From Acidobacteriota bacterium (lineage in GTDB: Bacteria; Acidobacteriota; Terriglobia; UBA7540), in assembly GCA_021838785.1 (NCBI GenBank), contig JAKCCV010000018.1:1-64000 (forward strand): a DNA stretch of 64,000 nucleotides, in the 5' to 3' direction. Numbering within the stretch: the stretch's first letter is position 1; each line of letters opens with the position of its first letter. Shown piece after piece: positions 2,616-57,318 of this stretch. Below the pieces are notes generated by a model, which had not been told where the DNA came from, made no database searches, and saw only the letters and a list, made by a program, of their open reading frames with translations. The translations under genes and the position numbers were made by a program.

Positions 2616-4639
2616 GTGTAGGGCTTTTGGATGTAACGATTAGCCAGGTCGAGGGCGCCTTGGGAGTTGTCGTGTGTCTGGAGCGCCTTCTGATACTCAT
2701 TGATGGCACGGTCGCGCTGGCCGGTCGCGTCAAAAATCTCGCCCAGCGTCAAATGGGCCCATACCCGAATCCAGTGCGGCTTTAGGTCCCCGTCCAGGGC
2801 CGCTCGCATTTCATCGGCGGCGGCGTTGTAGTTTCTCAGCAGGAAGTAAATTTGCCCCATGCGGTAATGCGCCAACGAATTGTTCTTATCAATCGCCACC
2901 ACCTTCTGGTACTGCTTGATGGCCTCGAGATAAGCCTGCTCCTCGCGGAGTTGGTCGCCGCGGGCAATTTCCACTTGCACTTTGAGCCGATTGTCCAGCT
3001 TGAGGATTTGGCTTCCGGGATCAATCACGACGTTGGTCGGGCGTGTCAAGGTGTTGATGGCGAAGTTAGCCCGCGTTCCTTCCATTTCGACCCGCGAGTC
3101 CACCGGGGGACGGCCCTCCGAGTAAACGCGAATCTCCACCGGCATTCGGAAGATATCCAGATCCTGATGAATGGTTCCCACCACCTGATAGTGATTGCCG
3201 ACGCGATAAATATCCCAGTTGTCGGTGAATTGCGGCACCCCGGTTGAGCTGACCCACTGCGCAAAGAAATAAGTTAAGGGCTGATGGCTCGCTGTTTCTG
3301 CCAGCTTCTGAAACTCCGCCGTGGTAATGGTTTTCCAGGCGCGCTGCTGGGCCATCATCTGGAGCGTCTTGAAGAAGGCATCGCTGCCAATCACGCCGCG
3401 CAACATGTGAAACACCATGGCGCCTTTCTGATAGACGATGGAGTGGTATTCGGGCGTAAAGTCTTGCAAACTTCCCGCCTCGCTGATCGGCGCAACTTCT
3501 TCATGGGTCAGCGCGCCGATCTCCGTCTGATGCATCAAGTCCTCGAAGGCCGCTTCACCTTCCGACGCCCGAACGTACAGCGCCGCCGAATAGGTGGCGA
3601 GGCCATCGTCAAGAAAGGCGTCATTGGGCGTGGCCGGGCTCACTAGACACGGCCACCACTGGCGGGCTATCTCCAGCGCTAACAGGCGCCGGTCCACCGG
3701 CTGCGTGAATCCCCGCTGGGCGAGGGCCACCACCCCGGGCGCCGCATAGCCTCCCACCGTGCCGTTGGGAATCTCGACGATATCCAAGTGTCCATTCGGT
3801 AGGGTGCCGAATTTTTCGGAGAAGAAGCTCAAAATATGAGTCGCCGTGTCTCCGTAACTTTTGGCGAGTTTATCCTCTCCGCTAAAGGTGTAAACCACAA
3901 TATTCCCATTGCTCGCAATGGAAGGGCGCGCCGTGTATTTGCCGGCCAAAACGGTTCCGGGAAACGAAGCTTGACCGTACTCAAAAGTATAGGTTTTGGT
4001 TCCCGTCTGCGCCACCGGCGTCGCCGCCATTCCCGAGGCAATCACGGTTTCGTCGTCAGGAACCGTCATATGAATGGTCGCGGCAAAACGGTCGAGGCCG
4101 GGCGGTCGCACCGGAAACCAATCCGAAGCATAGAGTAAGTAGGTGCCTTGACTCGACACGGAAGCAAGCTGCACCCCCTCGATCGGGCTTCCCGCCGCCG
4201 AACTGAGAGCACCTTTGTACGTGACCGTAATGCTGGTCGGCTGATCCGCAGGGAGGGGAGAAGAGAAATTCACTTGCAGGCTCAAGCCGTTCTGCTGGAA
4301 TTGCAGCGGGTTGCCCGCCGCGTCCGTAACCTTTTCCACCCGCAACGCACTGTCCAATTGAAAGCCGGCTGTCGAAAGGTCGCTGGTCGGCAAGAATCCG
4401 ATCTGGGCCGTTGCCGAAAGGATGTTGGCCGCAGGGAACAGCTCGGCGTTAATCGTATAACGCTGTACAGTAAAGTTGGCAGTCGTTTGCGCACGCGCCG
4501 AAAGCGGCAGCGAGAAAATGGACGCCGCCAGCGTCAGGAACGCAATCGCCACCCCTCCGAGCAGCTTCCTCGCCTCTCGCGTTGCCCCAAGCCCAGGATT
4601 GGGTTTGTTATTGGCCCACAGTAACTGTCTGCTCATCAA
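2594..4639 (-). CDS. Exported M1-peptidase-like protein with TPR tail, zinc site lost
   Basis: A 681-residue protein with a hydrophobic export signal at 27-50 (ends SARA-Q). A beta-rich N-terminal domain is followed by a gluzincin-like domain of the M1 aminopeptidase type and C-terminal TPR repeats (about 565-675). The M1 signature HExxH...(E)G is degenerate: at 322-326 the sequence is LEIAR, followed by QWW, and the downstream ligand region reads DDGLATY. Both histidine ligands are replaced (Leu, Arg) and the expected Glu is Asp, while the structural context (QWW, GLATY) is kept. A non-catalytic, binding or scaffold role is therefore likely. It is probably periplasmic. It is separated from lpxB by 85 bases. 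Confidence 0.75.
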   Translation of the reverse strand: MMSRQLLWANNKPNPGLGATREARKLLGGVAIAFLTLAASIFSLPLSARAQTTANFTVQRYTINAELFPAANILSATAQIGFLPTSDLSTAGFQLDSALRVEKVTDAAGNPLQFQQNGLSLQVNFSSPLPADQPTSITVTYKGALSSAAGSPIEGVQLASVSSQGTYLLYASDWFPVRPPGLDRFAATIHMTVPDDETVIASGMAATPVAQTGTKTYTFEYGQASFPGTVLAGKYTARPSIASNGNIVVYTFSGEDKLAKSYGDTATHILSFFSEKFGTLPNGHLDIVEIPNGTVGGYAAPGVVALAQRGFTQPVDRRLLALEIARQWWPCLVSPATPNDAFLDDGLATYSAALYVRASEGEAAFEDLMHQTEIGALTHEEVAPISEAGSLQDFTPEYHSIVYQKGAMVFHMLRGVIGSDAFFKTLQMMAQQRAWKTITTAEFQKLAETASHQPLTYFFAQWVSSTGVPQFTDNWDIYRVGNHYQVVGTIHQDLDIFRMPVEIRVYSEGRPPVDSRVEMEGTRANFAINTLTRPTNVVIDPGSQILKLDNRLKVQVEIARGDQLREEQAYLEAIKQYQKVVAIDKNNSLAHYRMGQIYFLLRNYNAAADEMRAALDGDLKPHWIRVWAHLTLGEIFDATGQRDRAINEYQKALQTHDNSQGALDLANRYIQKPYTQPPSNG

Positions 4640-4724
4640 TTGACCTATAAACTCTTGGATGCCGTTGCTTGCCGGGCAGGTGCATCGCCCTCCGCCCCCG
4701 TGGACGCTCTACCCAGTGGATGCA

Positions 4725-5900
4725 TTAAGCCGCTGACAGGGATGCCCCACCCAGTCCCAATTCGTGCCACACGGCGCTGGCGGCCCGTTCAATGGCGCCG
4801 CTCGGCCCCAGGCGCGCGCGCACTTCGCGCAGCCCTTCCACCATCCGAGCGCACGCCTCGGCGTGGTCCAACAAAAACTCAATCTCCTTGGCCAGCTTTT
4901 CCGCGGTCAAGTCGGCTTGGATCAATTCCGGCACCACGCGCCGGTTGGCGAGCAGGTTGACCATGCTGTAAAACGGAACCTTCACCAGCCGCCGCGCCAC
5001 CCAGGCCGTGGCAGGCGACACTCGGTAAATCACCACCATCGGCCGCTCGTGCAGTGCGGCCTCAAGGGTTGCGGTGCCGCTGGCAACCGCCGCCACGGCA
5101 GCATGCTCCAACGCCTCCTGCGAACGACCGGCAACGACCCTGAGCCGACCCCGCCCCTGATAGTGCTGCTGGACCAGAAGCTCAACCCTTGCGGTTTCCG
5201 CGGCCTGGGCCAGAGAAATCACAAACTGGACAGAACGTCGCGTGGCGATTTGGCTTGCCGCCGCCAGCATCACCGGCAGATGATGGCTCATTTCGCTTCG
5301 TCGGCTGCCGGGCAGCAGCGCTACCGTGGGGACTTCATCATCGAACCCCAAGGACTTTAAAAAATTTTCGCGCGATGAGTTAACCGTGGCCACGTCCACG
5401 AGGGGATGTCCCACAAATTCGACGGGAATGCCGGCCTTTCGGTAAATTTCCTGCTCAAAATCAAAAATACACAGCATCTTCTGAACGGTGGCTCGAAGCT
5501 GCTTGAGGCGACCGCGACGCCATGCCCAAATTTGAGGACTGACAAAGTAGATAACGGGAATCCCCAGCCGTCTGAGGCGGGCGGCCAGCCGAAGGTTAAA
5601 ATCGGGGAAATCAATCAGGACAGCGCCACGAGGGCGCCGGAGCATGGCCTCACGGGTCAGCCGCGCGAGGGCGCGCCAAGCGCGTGGCAACCCCGTGACA
5701 ACCTCGGTAATACCGATGGCCGAGACCTCGCGGGCATCCACCACCGTCTCAACTCCCGCCTCCCGCATCGCTTCTCCGGCGCACCCAAAGATTTCAAGCG
5801 AAGGATCCCTCCCCCGCAACGCGCGACACAAAGCGCCCCCATAAAAGTCTCCCGAGCTTTCTCCCGCCACCATCAGCAGGCTGTTTTTAGCCATGCTCAT
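4725..5900 (-). CDS. lpxB: Lipid-A-disaccharide synthase
   Basis: A 391-residue GT19 glycosyltransferase that joins UDP-2,3-diacylglucosamine and lipid X to form the lipid A disaccharide on the cytoplasmic face of the inner membrane. Diagnostic stretches are AGESSGD near the N-terminus, LIDFPDFNLRLA, YFVSPQIWAWR, GHPLVD and LLPGSRRSE. The length matches the family. The ATG overlaps the stop of the upstream ABC transporter gene as ATGA (5897-5900), so the two are probably translationally coupled. An in-frame ATG two codons later (5894) is an alternative start. Its presence supports an LPS-bearing, diderm cell. Confidence 0.95.
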   Translation of the reverse strand: MSMAKNSLLMVAGESSGDFYGGALCRALRGRDPSLEIFGCAGEAMREAGVETVVDAREVSAIGITEVVTGLPRAWRALARLTREAMLRRPRGAVLIDFPDFNLRLAARLRRLGIPVIYFVSPQIWAWRRGRLKQLRATVQKMLCIFDFEQEIYRKAGIPVEFVGHPLVDVATVNSSRENFLKSLGFDDEVPTVALLPGSRRSEMSHHLPVMLAAASQIATRRSVQFVISLAQAAETARVELLVQQHYQGRGRLRVVAGRSQEALEHAAVAAVASGTATLEAALHERPMVVIYRVSPATAWVARRLVKVPFYSMVNLLANRRVVPELIQADLTAEKLAKEIEFLLDHAEACARMVEGLREVRARLGPSGAIERAASAVWHELGLGGASLSAA

Positions 5901-7801
5901 CCCCCGGCGCCTTGCGGCTCGGGGTCCGCTTCAAGCGCGGCGGCCACCACGGAAGCCGATTCCCGGTCCACCGTGATTTCTTGGTCTTTGTACTGAAGCT
6001 GATACAGCTTGTAATAGATGCCTCGCCGCGCCAGCAGTTCCTGATGCGTTCCGATTTCCCTCACTCGACCCTTGTGCATGACAATGATCTTGGAGGCATT
6101 TTGGATGGTGGAGAGACGATGCGCGATGATAAGGGAGGTCCGATTCTCCAAAAGCCCGCGCAGGCCCTCCCGAATCTGGCTTTCGGTTTCCGGGTCCACG
6201 CTCGAGGTCGCTTCGTCCAGAATCAGAATGCGAGGATTGTGCGCCAGGGCGCGAGCGAAAGAGAGCAACTGTTTTTGCCCCGTGGAGAGCGTCGAGCCCC
6301 GCTCGCGCACCGGCTCGTTGAATCCGTGGGGAAGGCTCTCGATGAAGTCCAGGATGTTGACCCGCCGCGCCGCCGCGCGCACCTGCTCGTCGGTGATGGT
6401 TTTCGTCCCTAGGCGGATGTTGCTGGCAATGGTTCCTGAAAACAAGAAGGGGTCCTGCAAGACGACGGCAAAGTTTCTTCGCAAATCGTGTAGTCGAAGC
6501 TCGGAAAGTTTTTCCCCGTCAAACAAAATCTCCCCTTCCTGAATATCGTAGAACCTCAGCAGGAGACTGGTCAGGGTGGTTTTGCCGGCCCCGGTGTGCC
6601 CGACTACGGCCACGGTTTCCCCCGGCTCGATGGTAAAGGAAACGTTCTCGACGACTCGATGTTGGTCGCGATACGCAAAGCTGACTTGACGAAACTCCAC
6701 GTGGCCTTGAGGATCGGAGAGCAACTTCGGGTGCGGGGGATCCGTGATGGCCACCGGCGTGTCGAGCAGTCGGAAGATGCGTTCCGAGCTGGCCATCGCC
6801 GACTGCAAGATGTTGTATTTGTCACTGAGGTCCTGAATGGGGCGGAAAAAGCGCTGCGAATATTGAATAAAAGCAATCGCGGTTCCGACCGTCAGCATCC
6901 CGCGGAGTGCCATCCCGCCGCCGTAATAAAGGATGATGGCGATGGCCAACACTCCCAGAAATTCCACGGCGGGGTAGAAAAGCCCATAGGCCATGATGGA
7001 GTCTTTATAGGCTTCCATGTGGCTACGATTGATTTGGTCAAACTCCTCGAAGCTCTTCTCCTCGTGGTTGAAAAGCTGCACCACGCTCATGCCGGTGAGG
7101 TGTTCCTGCAAGTAGGTGTTAATCCGCGCGATGGCAATCCGAATGCGCCGGTAGGATTCCCGAACGGCCTTGCGGAAAGCGGCCGTCACCAACACAATCA
7201 GCGGCAGCACCGTAAACGTCAAAAGCGCCAGCTTCCAACTCAAGACCAGCATTACCCCCACAATGCTGAGCAGGGTGAAGAAATCTCCGAAGATGGCCAC
7301 CACCCCCGACGCGAACAGATCATTCAGAACGTCCACGTCGGTCGTGACCCGCGTGACCAGCCGACCGACAGGATTGCGGTCAAAGTAACTCATCTCCAGC
7401 CGTTGCAAATGTCCGAAGATCTGCTTGCGAAGGTCGTACATGACTTTTTGCCCCACCATCTGCATGGCATAGGTCTGGGCAAACTGCAGCGCAAAGGTCA
7501 ACAAAACCGTCGGCAAAAAGAACAAGAAAGCGAGTTGGCCAATGCCGATGAGCGGATGAGGGCTTAAGAACCGCGATAAAAACGCCGGAATTGGATTGCG
7601 GTGCGTCGGGTCAAGGTAGCGATCCACCTCGATTTTTAACAAATAGGGCGGAACGGCCTGCAGAATTCCGTAAAAGAAAATCGCAATGAGCGCAAAAACA
7701 ACGGTCTTGCGGTAAGGGCGCAGGTAACTGAGCAGCCGCCGCATGAGGCGACCGTCATACGCTTTTCCGAGAACGTCCTCTTCGTGAAAACCGTCTGGCA
7801 T
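5897..7801 (-). CDS. ABC exporter half-transporter, canonical Walker B subunit
   Basis: A type IV (MsbA/BmrA-like) half-transporter with six predicted membrane helices followed by an ATPase domain. The ATPase has Walker A GHTGAGKTT, a variant signature LSTGQ and the canonical catalytic Walker B DEA. The ATG at 7801 (634 residues) is preferred. A TTG at 7900 would overlap the upstream gene by 29 bases and add an Arg-rich extension (MRKRSRKRRR) unlike the family. Its partner is the upstream ABC gene, and the stop overlaps the start of lpxB. A LSTGQ signature in this subunit and a DDA Walker B in the partner is the pattern expected of a heterodimer with one degenerate ATP site. Lipid A or another lipid is a reasonable substrate guess from the lpxB linkage, but drug export cannot be excluded. 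Confidence 0.88.
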   Translation of the reverse strand: MPDGFHEEDVLGKAYDGRLMRRLLSYLRPYRKTVVFALIAIFFYGILQAVPPYLLKIEVDRYLDPTHRNPIPAFLSRFLSPHPLIGIGQLAFLFFLPTVLLTFALQFAQTYAMQMVGQKVMYDLRKQIFGHLQRLEMSYFDRNPVGRLVTRVTTDVDVLNDLFASGVVAIFGDFFTLLSIVGVMLVLSWKLALLTFTVLPLIVLVTAAFRKAVRESYRRIRIAIARINTYLQEHLTGMSVVQLFNHEEKSFEEFDQINRSHMEAYKDSIMAYGLFYPAVEFLGVLAIAIILYYGGGMALRGMLTVGTAIAFIQYSQRFFRPIQDLSDKYNILQSAMASSERIFRLLDTPVAITDPPHPKLLSDPQGHVEFRQVSFAYRDQHRVVENVSFTIEPGETVAVVGHTGAGKTTLTSLLLRFYDIQEGEILFDGEKLSELRLHDLRRNFAVVLQDPFLFSGTIASNIRLGTKTITDEQVRAAARRVNILDFIESLPHGFNEPVRERGSTLSTGQKQLLSFARALAHNPRILILDEATSSVDPETESQIREGLRGLLENRTSLIIAHRLSTIQNASKIIVMHKGRVREIGTHQELLARRGIYYKLYQLQYKDQEITVDRESASVVAAALEADPEPQGAGG

Positions 7802-53869: not shown

Positions 53870-54309
53870 GCAACCGGCCCACGCAGATGACCAACGGCCA
53901 GGACAACTCGACCCCTCTGCCTCGCCCCGCCGCCATGGGAAAAGCGGTAAGACTGGCGGTGGGTATCGCTCTCCTTTTTTTCTTCGCCCAGGTCATCCGT
54001 CAGACACCAGCCTTCCTTGCGGTCGAAACACGCTGGCGCATTCCTGGCGGCGAATGGTGGATTGCAGCGATAGGGTGTTTTTGGGCGTTACCGCGGGTTG
54101 TCAACGACGGCTTGGGGCGAGCGTGGGGGCACCGACCACAGTGGGTCTATCTGGCAATGGTTTTGGTGGCGGCTGGTTCCGATTTACTAATCTACAAGGC
54201 TTTGTGGGCGAAGCCCTTGGGTATGCTCGTGCTGCTGATGGTGCTTTACGTGTTCGGCTTCGCGGGCATTTCATTTTTGGTGGCTGCCCTCGCTGCCGTG
54301 CCAGGCTGA
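53866..54309 (+). CDS. Hypothetical membrane protein
   Basis: A 147-residue protein starting at a GTG that overlaps the stop of the aldo/keto reductase gene (GTGA). About four hydrophobic helices are predicted (29-45, 65-77, 93-110, 115-143). No family recognised. Translational coupling to the reductase is the only functional hint. Confidence 0.55.
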   Translation: MSNRPTQMTNGQDNSTPLPRPAAMGKAVRLAVGIALLFFFAQVIRQTPAFLAVETRWRIPGGEWWIAAIGCFWALPRVVNDGLGRAWGHRPQWVYLAMVLVAAGSDLLIYKALWAKPLGMLVLLMVLYVFGFAGISFLVAALAAVPG

Positions 54310-54483
54310 GAGATGCGCGCGATTCCCCAGGTCGTGGGGCGCATCATCGGACGAACGGCCGCCGGCCATGCCTGACCCGTCGGGCTGACCCGCCTGGATC
54401 GGTGGGAAAATCGGCGGCGAACACAGTGACCTCGAAGTGGGCCAGCTTCCTTCGGCTGTGGTGCGTTGCCTGCCTCGTTACGC

Positions 54484-54489
54484 TATAAT
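54484..54489 (+). promoter_or_regulatory. Perfect -10 element for the ATPase gene (possible leaderless start)
   Basis: TATAAT (54484-54489) ends six bases before the GTG start at 54496, exactly where transcription would begin if the mRNA were leaderless. The -35 region (GTGCGT at the 17-base spacing) is poor, and no ribosome site precedes the GTG. Confidence 0.45.
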
Positions 54490-54495
54490 GCCAGC

Positions 54496-55899
54496 GTGCT
54501 AAAAAAGATTCGCCTCAAGAATTTTAAGCTCCACGAGAACACAGAAATCGAGGCCGGCCGGATTACCGTCTTCATCGGGCCAAATAACAGCGGCAAGTCG
54601 AGCATCTTTCAAGCGCTGCTGGCGCTGAAGACCGCTGCCAGGTCGGGCGGCGATGACCTTGTGCGCCGCCACCGCCGCGAAGCACCGCCCCCAGCGGCCC
54701 AGCCTGTCCAGGCCGAGTGGGGCCTCAACTCATTGGTTCGACCGACGGAGCTCCCGCCGTTCCTCTACGGCGCTGGCCAGCCAATCGTTGACTTGGGCGA
54801 AGAGTACGAGGAGTTGCTGCACGACCCCTCCCGCGAGCTGCAGGTCGGCGCAGACATCGAGCTGCCACCAGATGCCAACGCAACCACGGTCTTCCTTGCG
54901 ATGGGCGCGCTCAGGCTTAGCTTCGACACCTGGTTCCGCGAAAATCGCTTGGCCCGACACACCGGCTGGCTTGGGTGCAATTACGGCCAGACGGCTCCCT
55001 GGGCCTGGAAAGCGATGGACGCTCGTCCGGCGGAGACCGTAAGGCTGATGGTACCCCATTACGGGGGGGAACTGTATGTGAACCCGGGCAATAGTTTGGC
55101 GAACCCTTTCTTCTGCGGAGTCCAGTTCAAGCAGCCGCCGCTCGACACTGACCTTTTGCCGACCCAGAACGAGCTCAACAGGTTGCTCAACCTTTGGGGA
55201 CGATTTCTCGACTCGCTGCGGTTCATCCACCAGCTACGCGGCTTTGAGGAGTGGGGCTATCCGACGACGGAATATCCCGCGCACGAAAGCCTCGACCGGC
55301 TCGTGCTCAGCGACCGCGCCACCGCGCTGACAAACTTACTGGGAGCCAACGCCAGGCTGCGGACTCAGATTTCCGAGCGGCTCAAGAAGTTGGTCCACAT
55401 CGGTATTGAATTTGAAACGGCTTCGGCGCATCGGGGGAAGGTTTGGGCAACTGCCGAGACGGGCAGGCCGGAGACGCTCTTCGTGAACGAGGGCTCAGGC
55501 GCGAGCCAATTGCCTTTCATCCTGGTTCCCATTGCCCTCGCTCAGCCCGGAGATACCGTCATCGTGTCGGAGCCAGAAGCGCACCTGCATCCCAAGGCGC
55601 AGTCTCAACTCACGGCCATGCTGTTGGAGATATCGCGCAAGGCCGACTTACAATTTTTCATTGAAACCCACAGTGAGCACGTGCTGCACAGGCTCCTTCA
55701 CGCCGTCGCAAACGGTGAACTTGCTCATGACGACCTCACGATTTACTACTTCCCGGAGCCAGCGGAGGGCAAGGCCGGTCCGCGCCTGCTCAAGATTGAC
55801 GAGCAAGGCGGGGTCGAAGGCGGCCTGCCGGGATTTTTCGACCAAAGCTTGGATGAGCTGACGGAGTATCTTGAAGCGCTCAAGCAACCCAAGAAGTGA
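54496..55899 (+). CDS. RecF/SMC-like AAA ATPase without TOPRIM (DUF3696-like)
   Basis: A 467-residue ABC-type ATPase. The N-terminus IRLKNFKLHENTEI is typical of this clade. Walker A is GPNNSGKSS (28-36). The Walker B/D-loop region SEPEAHLHPKAQ is at about 358-369, and the H-loop is IETHSEH at about 389-395. A C-terminal segment, EGGLPGFFDQSLDEL, is seen in DUF3696 proteins. No TOPRIM nuclease domain follows, unlike OLD family members. Its partner gene begins three bases downstream and encodes a PIN-like protein. ATPase plus separate small nuclease is a recurrent antiphage architecture, so defence is inferred, not shown. Confidence 0.78.
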   Translation: MLKKIRLKNFKLHENTEIEAGRITVFIGPNNSGKSSIFQALLALKTAARSGGDDLVRRHRREAPPPAAQPVQAEWGLNSLVRPTELPPFLYGAGQPIVDLGEEYEELLHDPSRELQVGADIELPPDANATTVFLAMGALRLSFDTWFRENRLARHTGWLGCNYGQTAPWAWKAMDARPAETVRLMVPHYGGELYVNPGNSLANPFFCGVQFKQPPLDTDLLPTQNELNRLLNLWGRFLDSLRFIHQLRGFEEWGYPTTEYPAHESLDRLVLSDRATALTNLLGANARLRTQISERLKKLVHIGIEFETASAHRGKVWATAETGRPETLFVNEGSGASQLPFILVPIALAQPGDTVIVSEPEAHLHPKAQSQLTAMLLEISRKADLQFFIETHSEHVLHRLLHAVANGELAHDDLTIYYFPEPAEGKAGPRLLKIDEQGGVEGGLPGFFDQSLDELTEYLEALKQPKK

Positions 55900-55902
55900 C
55901 GC

Positions 55903-56388
55903 GTGCGCCAAACGTTCCTGCTCGACGAGAACATCATCTACCACGCCATCCGCGGAGTTGACGAGCACAACCAACCCGATACGACCACGGCGGAATTGCT
56001 GGTTGCGATCGCGAAGATCTGCCACGGCATTTTCGTTCATCAGCATCTGCTTGACGCCTACAACAAGGCTCTGAAAAGCTTACGGGATTATCCGCCGCGC
56101 TCGCCAATCGCCTTATTCTTCGTCAAGCAGCTCCTTTACAACAGCTCGAAGCGCGGGGCCGTCCGGCAAGGCGAGTTGCCCCCGCTGCCCCTCGCCGCTA
56201 GGAAACCACCTGCGGTGCCACGAGAAGACGAATGGGTCGTTCAAGCGGCGCTGATCTCCAGCCCCATCCTCGTTACTAATGAGGCCGGCCTCAGGGATTC
56301 TGTCAACGGGCACCGGGACGCTTTGGGCCTCAGGGCGATGGACGCGCGCGAGGCGCTGAATTTTGCGGAGTCCGAGCATGTGCCGTGA
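55903..56388 (+). CDS. PIN-like nuclease-fold protein partnered with the ATPase
   Basis: A 161-residue protein starting at a GTG three bases after the ATPase stop. The N-terminus FLLDENIIYHAI (Asp8, Glu9) and the C-terminal ILVTNEAGLRD (124-132) match the strand-acidic and TxD-type segments of PIN/PIN-like folds. Glu31 and EDE (108-110) supply further acidic residues for a metal site. PIN proteins are typically RNases or, in some contexts, DNases. The substrate is unknown. Tight spacing implies one transcript and probably one complex with the ATPase. Confidence 0.6.
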   Translation: MRQTFLLDENIIYHAIRGVDEHNQPDTTTAELLVAIAKICHGIFVHQHLLDAYNKALKSLRDYPPRSPIALFFVKQLLYNSSKRGAVRQGELPPLPLAARKPPAVPREDEWVVQAALISSPILVTNEAGLRDSVNGHRDALGLRAMDAREALNFAESEHVP

Positions 56389-56532
56389 GAGCTATGGGAA
56401 AGCGCGCTGACGAACCCCAGTTGTGCCGAGGCCAAGGGGATCACGGCATGCGGTTGGCGATGCCGAGCAGGGCGCAGGCAAGCATAAGGACGACGAAGCC
56501 GCCGGCCGAGTTGAGGACGTGGAGGAAAACGA

Positions 56533-57318
56533 ATGGGCAACCCGGATACGAACGCTGATCGGCTACTTGAAATGGTAGGGCAAATCCGGGCTTACGCCCG
56601 CGAGAGAGAACTCACCCTCTTCTATGGGTACGTCGGAGGCGGCGACGACGCGATCCAATGGAATGAGGAGCAAGGCGGAGGTTGGCGGGAGTTCGTCGAT
56701 TGCGCGAAATCGCTGGGCGCCCGTATCTTGTACCTGAACTGGGCCCCCTTTGAGGAATTTCAGGTGGCGGACGCACTGGAGGAAGCGCAGGCGCTCCCCG
56801 CCGCCGCTCCGGGTGCAGCGGCGCGCGACGCCGCATCGCTTAGCCAGGAGATTGAAGGTTACAGGGAGAAGGTCGGGCTTACCGCCGTAATTGACCTCGC
56901 GTTCCTTGCCGACGGTATTTTCCACACCCTTGAGATCGAAGCGGACTGGTTCCGCGCCTTCCAGGAGCTGCTGCCTGAGGGCGAAGGGGACGAAGGCGTC
57001 AACGACCAGGCGCGGGAGCAGCTCGTCCGAAAATGGGCCCCCAAGCTGGCCAGCGCCCCCGAGTACGCGAGATGCACGACGCGCGGGGAACAGAGGCATG
57101 TGCTGCGCAAGCTTGCCGGAGCCGAGTATGACGGCCCTGCCGCAGAGGAGATTCTCGACGAGGCGAAGGCTATTTATGAGCTCGAGGTATACCCTGAGAG
57201 GGCACGGCGCCTAGGCAAGGAAGCACGTGAGCTTAAGGCGCGCGGGGAAACCCTCCAAGGGATCGCCGCGAAGCTGGGCGTGTCGAACTGGCAGGTTCGA
57301 AAGTTGCTCGCCGAGTGA
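56533..57318 (+). CDS. Unknown protein with C-terminal HTH
   Basis: A 261-residue protein I do not recognise. The N-terminal half (LLEMVGQIRAYARERELTLFYGYVGGGDDAIQW ... WREFVDCAKSLGARILYLNWAPFEEF) looks alpha/beta. The centre is acidic and helical. The last 30 residues (ETLQGIAAKLGVSNWQVRKLLAE) form a helix-turn-helix of the resolvase/Sigma70-region-4 type, probably for DNA binding. A good GGAGG ribosome site lies seven bases before the ATG. It follows the ATPase/PIN pair by 144 bases, so it could be a regulator or third component. Confidence 0.55.
   Translation: MGNPDTNADRLLEMVGQIRAYARERELTLFYGYVGGGDDAIQWNEEQGGGWREFVDCAKSLGARILYLNWAPFEEFQVADALEEAQALPAAAPGAAARDAASLSQEIEGYREKVGLTAVIDLAFLADGIFHTLEIEADWFRAFQELLPEGEGDEGVNDQAREQLVRKWAPKLASAPEYARCTTRGEQRHVLRKLAGAEYDGPAAEEILDEAKAIYELEVYPERARRLGKEARELKARGETLQGIAAKLGVSNWQVRKLLAE

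What the first reader, a model, noticed from the sequence alone, without database searches (positions are those of the whole stretch)
54484..56388. ATPase/PIN-like two-gene unit, candidate antiphage or abortive-infection system
A RecF/SMC-type ATPase (GPNNSGKS, SEPEAHLHP, ETHSEH) without its own nuclease domain is followed after three bases by a small acidic protein with PIN-like ends. Systems pairing an ABC-type ATPase with a separate effector (Septu, PARIS, PrrC-type) are established defence architectures. The PIN-like partner is, as far as I recall, not one of the standard effectors. The role in defence is inference.
Basis: partly seen in the sequence, partly recalled or inferred. Interest (0 to 1): 0.65.

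Follow-up and report, generated by a model that had tools for sequence, protein, structure and literature searches.

The report
ATPase sensor paired with PIN nuclease
Two neighbouring genes in an Acidobacteriota genome encode an SMC-like ATPase and a small PIN-fold (nuclease-type) protein that always occur together, and they are most likely an uncharacterised relative of known two-protein phage-defence switches whose effector part is swapped between close relatives.

Summary
The pair is real. ATPase: window 54496-55899 (GTG start, not 54484). Partner: 55903-56388, three bases downstream. The partner has no usable Pfam, PADLOC, NCBIfam or PDB sequence match. A predicted model (pLDDT 86.8) matches PIN structures (VapC-type, Z about 11), and profile searches reach authentic PIN proteins. 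In 13 of 13 distinct loci the partner lies beside the same ATPase clade; two clades (A, B) exist, and this genome carries one of each. The unit is patchy, absent from the same site in two congeners. Some relatives lie in a prophage or beside restriction-modification genes. The closest named system is PADLOC's candidate HEC-03 (PIN-like HEC-03A plus DUF3696 ATPase HEC-03B); this pair is a sister lineage whose PIN that model misses. In a congener with 94-98% identical flanks, the ATPase core is kept, but its middle insert, C-terminal tail and the whole PIN gene are replaced. Across clade A, PIN divergence tracks only the ATPase tail. I infer an ATPase sensor with a PIN effector docked on its tail and activated by infection, as in WonAB or PARIS. 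Defence, RNase activity and binding are untested. OLD-ABC plus PIN dyads are already mentioned in the literature: a new variant of a known kind.

The parts
54496..55899 (+). ABC/SMC-type ATPase (AAA_15/AAA_21, DUF3696 C-terminus), 467 aa, GTG start: proposed sensor/regulator
   Evidence: Pfam AAA_15 8.5e-25, AAA_21 8.9e-19, DUF3696 1.2e-4; PADLOC NsnB 7e-49, HEC-03B 1e-33; fused model resembles SMC, Rad50 and PtuA heads
54577..54600 (+). Walker A GPNNSGKS (aa 28-35)
   Evidence: sequence; G28, G33, K34, S35 invariant in 12 relatives
54850..55200 (+). Hypervariable middle insert of the ATPase (about aa 118-235): proposed recognition region
   Evidence: 45% aa identity to the congener allele L045 against 88-91% in the core; dS 1.24 against 0.22; beta-strand-rich in the model
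55567..55593 (+). Walker B with following motif (SEPEAHLHP, aa 358-366)
   Evidence: E359, P360, E361, H363, P366 invariant
55663..55680 (+). H-loop motif ETHSEH (aa 390-395)
   Evidence: H392, S393, E394 invariant
55708..55896 (+). C-terminal tail of the ATPase (DUF3696 region, aa 405-467): proposed dock for the PIN protein
   Evidence: replaced together with the PIN gene in L045; only segment whose divergence tracks the PIN (Mantel r 0.80, p 0.005)
55903..56388 (+). PIN-fold protein, 161 aa, GTG start: proposed nuclease effector; acidic positions D8, D51, D109, E127
   Evidence: model pLDDT 86.8, pTM 0.84; best PDB matches are PIN proteins, VapC11 Z 11.1; acidic positions
54420..56446 (.). 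Segment carrying the pair that is missing at the same site in congener G514 (92 bp instead)
   Evidence: L061 2214-2346 matches window 54287-54419 and L061 2062-2122 matches 56447-56507

Best explanation
A two-gene, patchily distributed unit in which an ABC/SMC-type ATPase dimer or oligomer holds a small PIN-fold nuclease on its C-terminal (DUF3696) tail and keeps it inactive. A cue from infection, probably read through the variable middle insert and coupled to ATP binding or hydrolysis, frees or activates the PIN protein, which then cleaves RNA (most likely tRNA or rRNA, the usual targets of VapC-type PIN enzymes) and halts growth: abortive infection. Shown here: ATPase and PIN folds (by prediction), obligatory linkage, tight gene coupling, presence/absence at one site, exchange of insert, tail and PIN as modules, kinship with HEC-03, prophage and RM contexts for some relatives. 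Inferred: complex formation, sensing, RNA cleavage, defence.
For: Fold: PIN model pLDDT 86.8 with PIN proteins as top PDB matches. PIN by sequence: the profile reaches canonical PIN proteins; a relative hits annotated PIN-family toxins on plasmids, E 6e-4. Acidic positions: D8 in 7/7 clade A rows, D109 and D/E127 in all rows that cover them. Linkage: 13/13; in 399 genomes of the class, all ATPases with E <= 1e-64 are those beside this PIN, and the seven next ATPases each precede another PIN-like protein. Co-exchange: dS jump, Mantel test. Presence/absence. Context: major head protein, tape measure, replication protein; HsdS/HsdR; type IIG RM enzyme. Kinship with HEC-03. Precedent: in WonAB, WonB is predicted to dock on dimerised C-terminal extensions of WonA, and activation aborts infection by blocking translation (PMC12137116); in PARIS, AriA sequesters and then releases AriB (PMC12409363).
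Against: No defence, nuclease or binding assay was done or found for any member. The window pair itself lies among metabolic genes, not in a defence island, and only 3 of 13 related loci show prophage or RM neighbours, without a measured background rate. The second acidic position is not strict (G or Q in two clade A rows), and clade B mostly has N at position 8, so some members may be weak or inactive nucleases. Co-divergence of tail and PIN could come from physical adjacency of one recombination tract. The fused model is only moderate (pLDDT 70, pTM 0.59), so it says nothing firm on docking.
Confidence: 0.55

Rival explanations
1. Toxin-antitoxin-like addiction module: the PIN protein is a toxin and the ATPase neutralises it, serving maintenance of the element rather than defence.
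For: PIN fold is that of VapC toxins; tight operon; patchy, insertion-like occurrence.
Against: Order is ATPase first and the partner is a 467-aa ABC ATPase, not a small DNA-binding antitoxin; the ATPase has a hypervariable insert, unexpected for a plain antitoxin. In the analogous WonAB the authors argue against a simple TA reading.
Confidence: 0.17
2. Restriction-type system: the pair recognises and cuts invading DNA (plasmid or phage) rather than host RNA, in the manner of Septu or Gabija.
For: ATPase head resembles SMC/Rad50, PtuA and OLD proteins that act on DNA; type I and IIG RM genes near two relatives.
Against: Bacterial PIN effectors are usually RNases (general knowledge); sister HEC-03 pairs are followed by an RNA ligase in three Acidobacteriota loci and on several plasmids, which points to RNA.
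Confidence: 0.12
3. Cellular housekeeping role (RNA processing or chromosome maintenance) unrelated to defence.
For: Window and several relatives sit between metabolic genes; one OLD-family ATPase in archaea has a cell-cycle role (PMC12796447, abstract).
Against: Found in only 6 of 39 genomes of the family and absent from the same site in two congeners; allele swapping is untypical for a housekeeping gene.
Confidence: 0.08
4. The PIN protein is not a nuclease any more (clade B in particular) and serves as a structural or RNA-binding partner of the ATPase.
For: Clade B has N at position 8 in four of five rows and usually no acid at position 51.
Against: Clade A, with the window, keeps D8, D109 and D/E127 throughout.
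Confidence: 0.08

Closest known systems
HEC-03 (PADLOC Hma-embedded candidate 03: HEC-03A PIN-like + HEC-03B DUF3696 ATPase)
   Same: Same gene order, same kind of ATPase (E 1e-33) and a PIN-like partner that is homologous by profile comparison (hhalign probability 92, E 6e-7).
   Different: Window PIN is not matched by HEC-03A; ATPases form a separate clade (100/98); no RNA ligase gene follows; the first motif is LLDEN or NEW, not VVDTN. HEC-03 itself is a candidate; no test of it was found in the library.
WonAB (Vibrio cholerae WASA-1 prophage, PMC12137116)
   Same: OLD-type ABC ATPase plus separate small nuclease; effector predicted to dock on C-terminal extensions; inserts vary among related operons; carried by a prophage, like one relative here (L043).
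   Different: WonB is a PD-(D/E)xK nuclease, not PIN; direct sequence comparison was not made here.
PARIS (AriA/AriB)
   Same: ABC ATPase sensor with a separately encoded nuclease effector that cleaves tRNA.
   Different: AriB is a Toprim nuclease; AriA models match the window ATPase less well (2e-29) than NsnB or HEC-03B.
Menshen (NsnA/NsnB/NsnC)
   Same: NsnB is the best single PADLOC model for the window ATPase (7e-49).
   Different: Menshen-like plasmid loci carry a DUF262 gene upstream and a third protein of about 240-320 aa; the window has neither, and the ATPases are a different clade.
VapC-type PIN toxins
   Same: PIN fold with matching acidic positions.
   Different: Antitoxin gene absent; partner is an ATPase.

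Membership tests
HEC-03 | ATPase matches HEC-03B as its best model over full length | tested here: not met
   E 1.1e-33 with NsnB scoring better, against 1e-207 for true HEC-03B relatives
HEC-03 | Partner matches the HEC-03A model | tested here: not met
   no match for window, L002, L003 and L016 partners; sister pairs match at 3e-66
HEC-03 | Partner homologous to HEC-03A at profile level | tested here: met
   hhalign probability 92, E 5.9e-7, 137 columns
PIN-domain superfamily | PIN fold | tested here: met
   model pLDDT 86.8; top matches PIN proteins, Z 11.1, 128 residues, rmsd 3.1 for VapC11
PIN-domain superfamily | Conserved acidic catalytic residues | tested here: inconclusive
   D8, D109, D/E127 kept in clade A; position 51 acidic in 5 of 7; clade B departs
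DUF3696/OLD-like ABC ATPases | Walker A, signature region, Walker B, H-loop and DUF3696 tail | tested here: met
   DUF3696 over its cut-off (22.6 against 22 bits)
Menshen | DUF262 NsnA and NsnC beside NsnB | tested here: not met
   neighbours are an aldo/keto reductase region and the PIN gene; plasmid Menshen-like loci differ
PARIS | Toprim effector AriB | tested here: not met
   effector has PIN fold
WonAB | PD-(D/E)xK effector | tested here: not met
   effector has PIN fold
VapBC | Small DNA-binding antitoxin gene next to the PIN gene | tested here: not met
   adjacent partner is the ATPase in 13 of 13 loci
Any antiphage system | Protection from phage | not testable with these tools
   needs an infection assay

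The most novel reading that the evidence does not exclude
A modular defence switch whose sensor insert and whose effector module (ATPase tail plus PIN nuclease) are exchanged as cassettes around a fixed ATPase core at one chromosomal site, so that close relatives carry alternative alleles with different specificity and effector.
Probability: 0.35. Interest if true: 0.65.

Novelty: new variant of a known kind. Interest (0 to 1): 0.45.

Why it matters
ATPase sensors paired with separate nucleases are a large and mostly uncharacterised group of bacterial immune systems. This pair adds two clades whose PIN partner the PADLOC and Pfam models miss, shows that PIN proteins are a regular partner of DUF3696-type ATPases in these genomes, and offers natural mosaic alleles that separate sensor, core and effector-docking segments, so domain-swap tests can be designed from what evolution already did. 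The RNA ligase beside the sister HEC-03 pairs suggests an RNA target and possibly an RNA-repair counterpart.

Tried and rejected
Direct family look-ups of the partner (Pfam, PADLOC, NCBIfam, PDB sequences) gave nothing usable. Searches of viral contigs, phage and plasmid records for clade A/B partners gave no true relative; a 12-row alignment was too diverse for the viral scan. Stop-codon readthrough (many pairs are in frame, separated by a stop and one or two codons) was considered and set aside: stop codons differ (TGA, TAA, TAG) and some pairs are not in frame. Horizontal origin by composition: GC of the pair (60.5%) equals the window's (60.3%), uninformative. The downstream ORF 56533-57318 was considered as a third component and rejected: absent in L045 and not among the genes beside L002 or L003. 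RNA ligase near clade A/B pairs: none found. Weak hits L022-L025 and L070 are other PIN proteins without this ATPase, not members; L026 and L027 are chance hits. The Krishnan et al. 2020 survey of ABC ATPases (PMC7544218) is not held, so whether this exact pair is listed there could not be checked.

Full report
OBSERVATION. The window lies in a 3.42-Mb genome (contig C3) whose nearest relatives are Acidobacteria MAGs. The ATPase gene runs 54496-55899 and the partner 55903-56388 on the + strand. The quoted motifs and the three-base gap are correct. The partner is not notably acidic (pI 6.65).

WHAT THE ATPASE IS. Pfam: AAA_15 (8.5e-25), AAA_21 (8.9e-19), DUF3696 just over its cut-off. PADLOC: NsnB of Menshen 7e-49, HEC-03B 1e-33, PDC-M55A 2e-30, AriA 2e-29. 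A predicted model of the ATPase and PIN read as one chain (stop read as a residue) has modest quality (pLDDT 70, pTM 0.59); its ATPase part resembles SMC heads (Z 18.3), retron PtuA (17.5) and Rad50. Catalytic motifs are invariant in twelve relatives.

WHAT THE PARTNER IS. No library named it. A model from a 12-row alignment is confident (pLDDT 86.8, pTM 0.84). Foldseek's leading matches are PIN proteins, with E about 1e-3; VIA-align gives VapC11 Z 11.1 (128 residues, rmsd 3.1), VapC4 10.8, and 88 chains at Z 8 or more. Independent sequence support: an early five-row profile picked up canonical PIN proteins (LDTNVFISSFFGG...TGD) in other genomes at E 5e-4 to 5e-3, and the relative in L042 hits plasmid genes annotated as PIN-family toxins at E 6e-4. 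Acidic positions D8, D109 and D/E127 hold throughout clade A; position 51 is acidic in five of seven; clade B mostly has N at 8 followed by invariant E9. I therefore call the fold PIN with confidence and nuclease activity likely for clade A, open for clade B.

LINKAGE. Profile searches found thirteen distinct partner genes: clade A in the window, L002/G512, L003/G592, L042, L043, L044, L045 and L073; clade B in this genome's contig C17 (L015), L016, L019, L020 and L021. All thirteen lie directly beside the same ATPase group. Conversely, an ATPase profile over 399 genomes of the class returned, at E <= 1e-64, only those loci, and the next seven ATPases (E 1e-31 to 1e-49) each precede a different PIN-like protein, VVDTNV or VIDTNVF type (L086 is cut by the locus end). 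So the pairing with a PIN protein is the rule for this wider ATPase group in these genomes, with several PIN clades.

PATCHINESS. Partner genes occur in 6 of 39 genomes of the family and in a few per cent or less of the sampled class and phylum genomes. At the window's own site, congener G512 has 128 bp between the flanking genes, and congener G514 keeps both short flanks (window 54287-54419 and 56447-56507) with 92 bp between them, so a segment of about 2.03 kb with the pair is present or absent as a unit.

MOSAIC ALLELES. Congener G513 (L045) carries the pair at the same site with flanks 94-98% identical. ATPase residues of the N-terminal and second core segments are 88-91% identical to the window's, but the middle (45%), the tail (59%) and the whole PIN (41%) are not. 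Synonymous divergence jumps too: dS 0.22-0.24 in the core, 1.24 in the middle, saturated in the tail, 1.87 in the PIN, which means replacement by different DNA rather than selection alone. Against L002 the PIN is the more recently shared part: PIN dS 0.59, ATPase 1.2-2.0. In clade A, PIN distances correlate with tail distances (Mantel r 0.80, p 0.005) and not with the other segments (r 0.18-0.26, not significant). This fits a tail that docks the PIN protein, but adjacency within one recombination tract could give the same pattern. Misassembly of a MAG contig cannot be excluded from sequence alone, though several switch points and an intact reading frame speak against it.

CONTEXT. The window surroundings are metabolic. 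Of the relatives, L043 sits among a phage major head protein, a tape measure, a replication protein and HNH; L049 (the L021 pair) next to HsdS and HsdR and a terminase-like gene; L047 (the L019 pair) between pyrB and pyrC with a type IIG restriction enzyme following. No background rate was measured, so this is suggestive only.

RELATION TO KNOWN SYSTEMS. The more distant ATPase-PIN pairs are PADLOC's candidate HEC-03 (HEC-03A 3e-66, HEC-03B 1e-207). The window's partner family is homologous to HEC-03A by profile comparison (probability 92, E 6e-7) but is not detected by that model. A maximum-likelihood tree puts clades A and B together (100/98), apart from HEC-03 and from Menshen ATPases. HEC-03 pairs are followed by an RNA ligase family gene in three Acidobacteriota loci and on Aeromonas, Azotobacter and Rhodococcus plasmids; none was found near clade A/B pairs. 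Literature: OLD-ABC ATPases paired with PIN endoRNases have been reported in BREX neighbourhoods (PMC12839542). Several HECs, HEC-06 among them, are reported to have antiviral activity (PMC12988326); HEC-03 is not named there. WonAB (PMC12137116) is described as part of a larger family of ABC-ATPase sensors paired with nucleases, differing in inserts and C-terminal extensions, and aborts infection by blocking translation. PARIS AriA sequesters AriB and releases it on a phage trigger (PMC12409363).

MECHANISM. Best reading: ATPase as sensor and keeper, PIN protein as effector docked on the tail, activation by an infection cue, cleavage of host RNA, growth arrest. Folds (predicted), linkage, module exchange and kinship are shown; sensing, docking, cleavage and defence are inferred. 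Verdict: a real and coherent system, a new variant of a known kind, of moderate interest mainly for its natural mosaic alleles.

Noticed in passing
L015 4441-6099 (G000 contig C17): The same genome carries a second, divergent ATPase-PIN pair (clade B) between housekeeping genes.
   Followed up: yes
L087, L089, L090, L093, L094, L096, L097: HEC-03-type ATPase-PIN pairs are followed by an RNA ligase family gene, suggesting an RNA target and possibly a repair partner.
   Followed up: partly
L088 2188-2667 with ATPase 745-2184: A further PIN-like partner (VIDTNVF type) of a DUF3696 ATPase that no PADLOC or Pfam model detects.
   Followed up: no
window 56533-57318: Unknown 261-aa ORF; absent from the congener allele L045; no significant Pfam, PADLOC, NCBIfam or PHROGs match.
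   Followed up: partly
L047 8196-9875 (G275): A clade B pair is inserted between pyrB and pyrC, followed by a type IIG restriction-modification gene.
   Followed up: partly
L095 (Acinetobacter soli plasmid) 4627-6516: HEC-03-like pair with a split ATPase annotation, inside a helicase/N6-methylase cluster and followed by an HNH gene instead of the RNA ligase.
   Followed up: no
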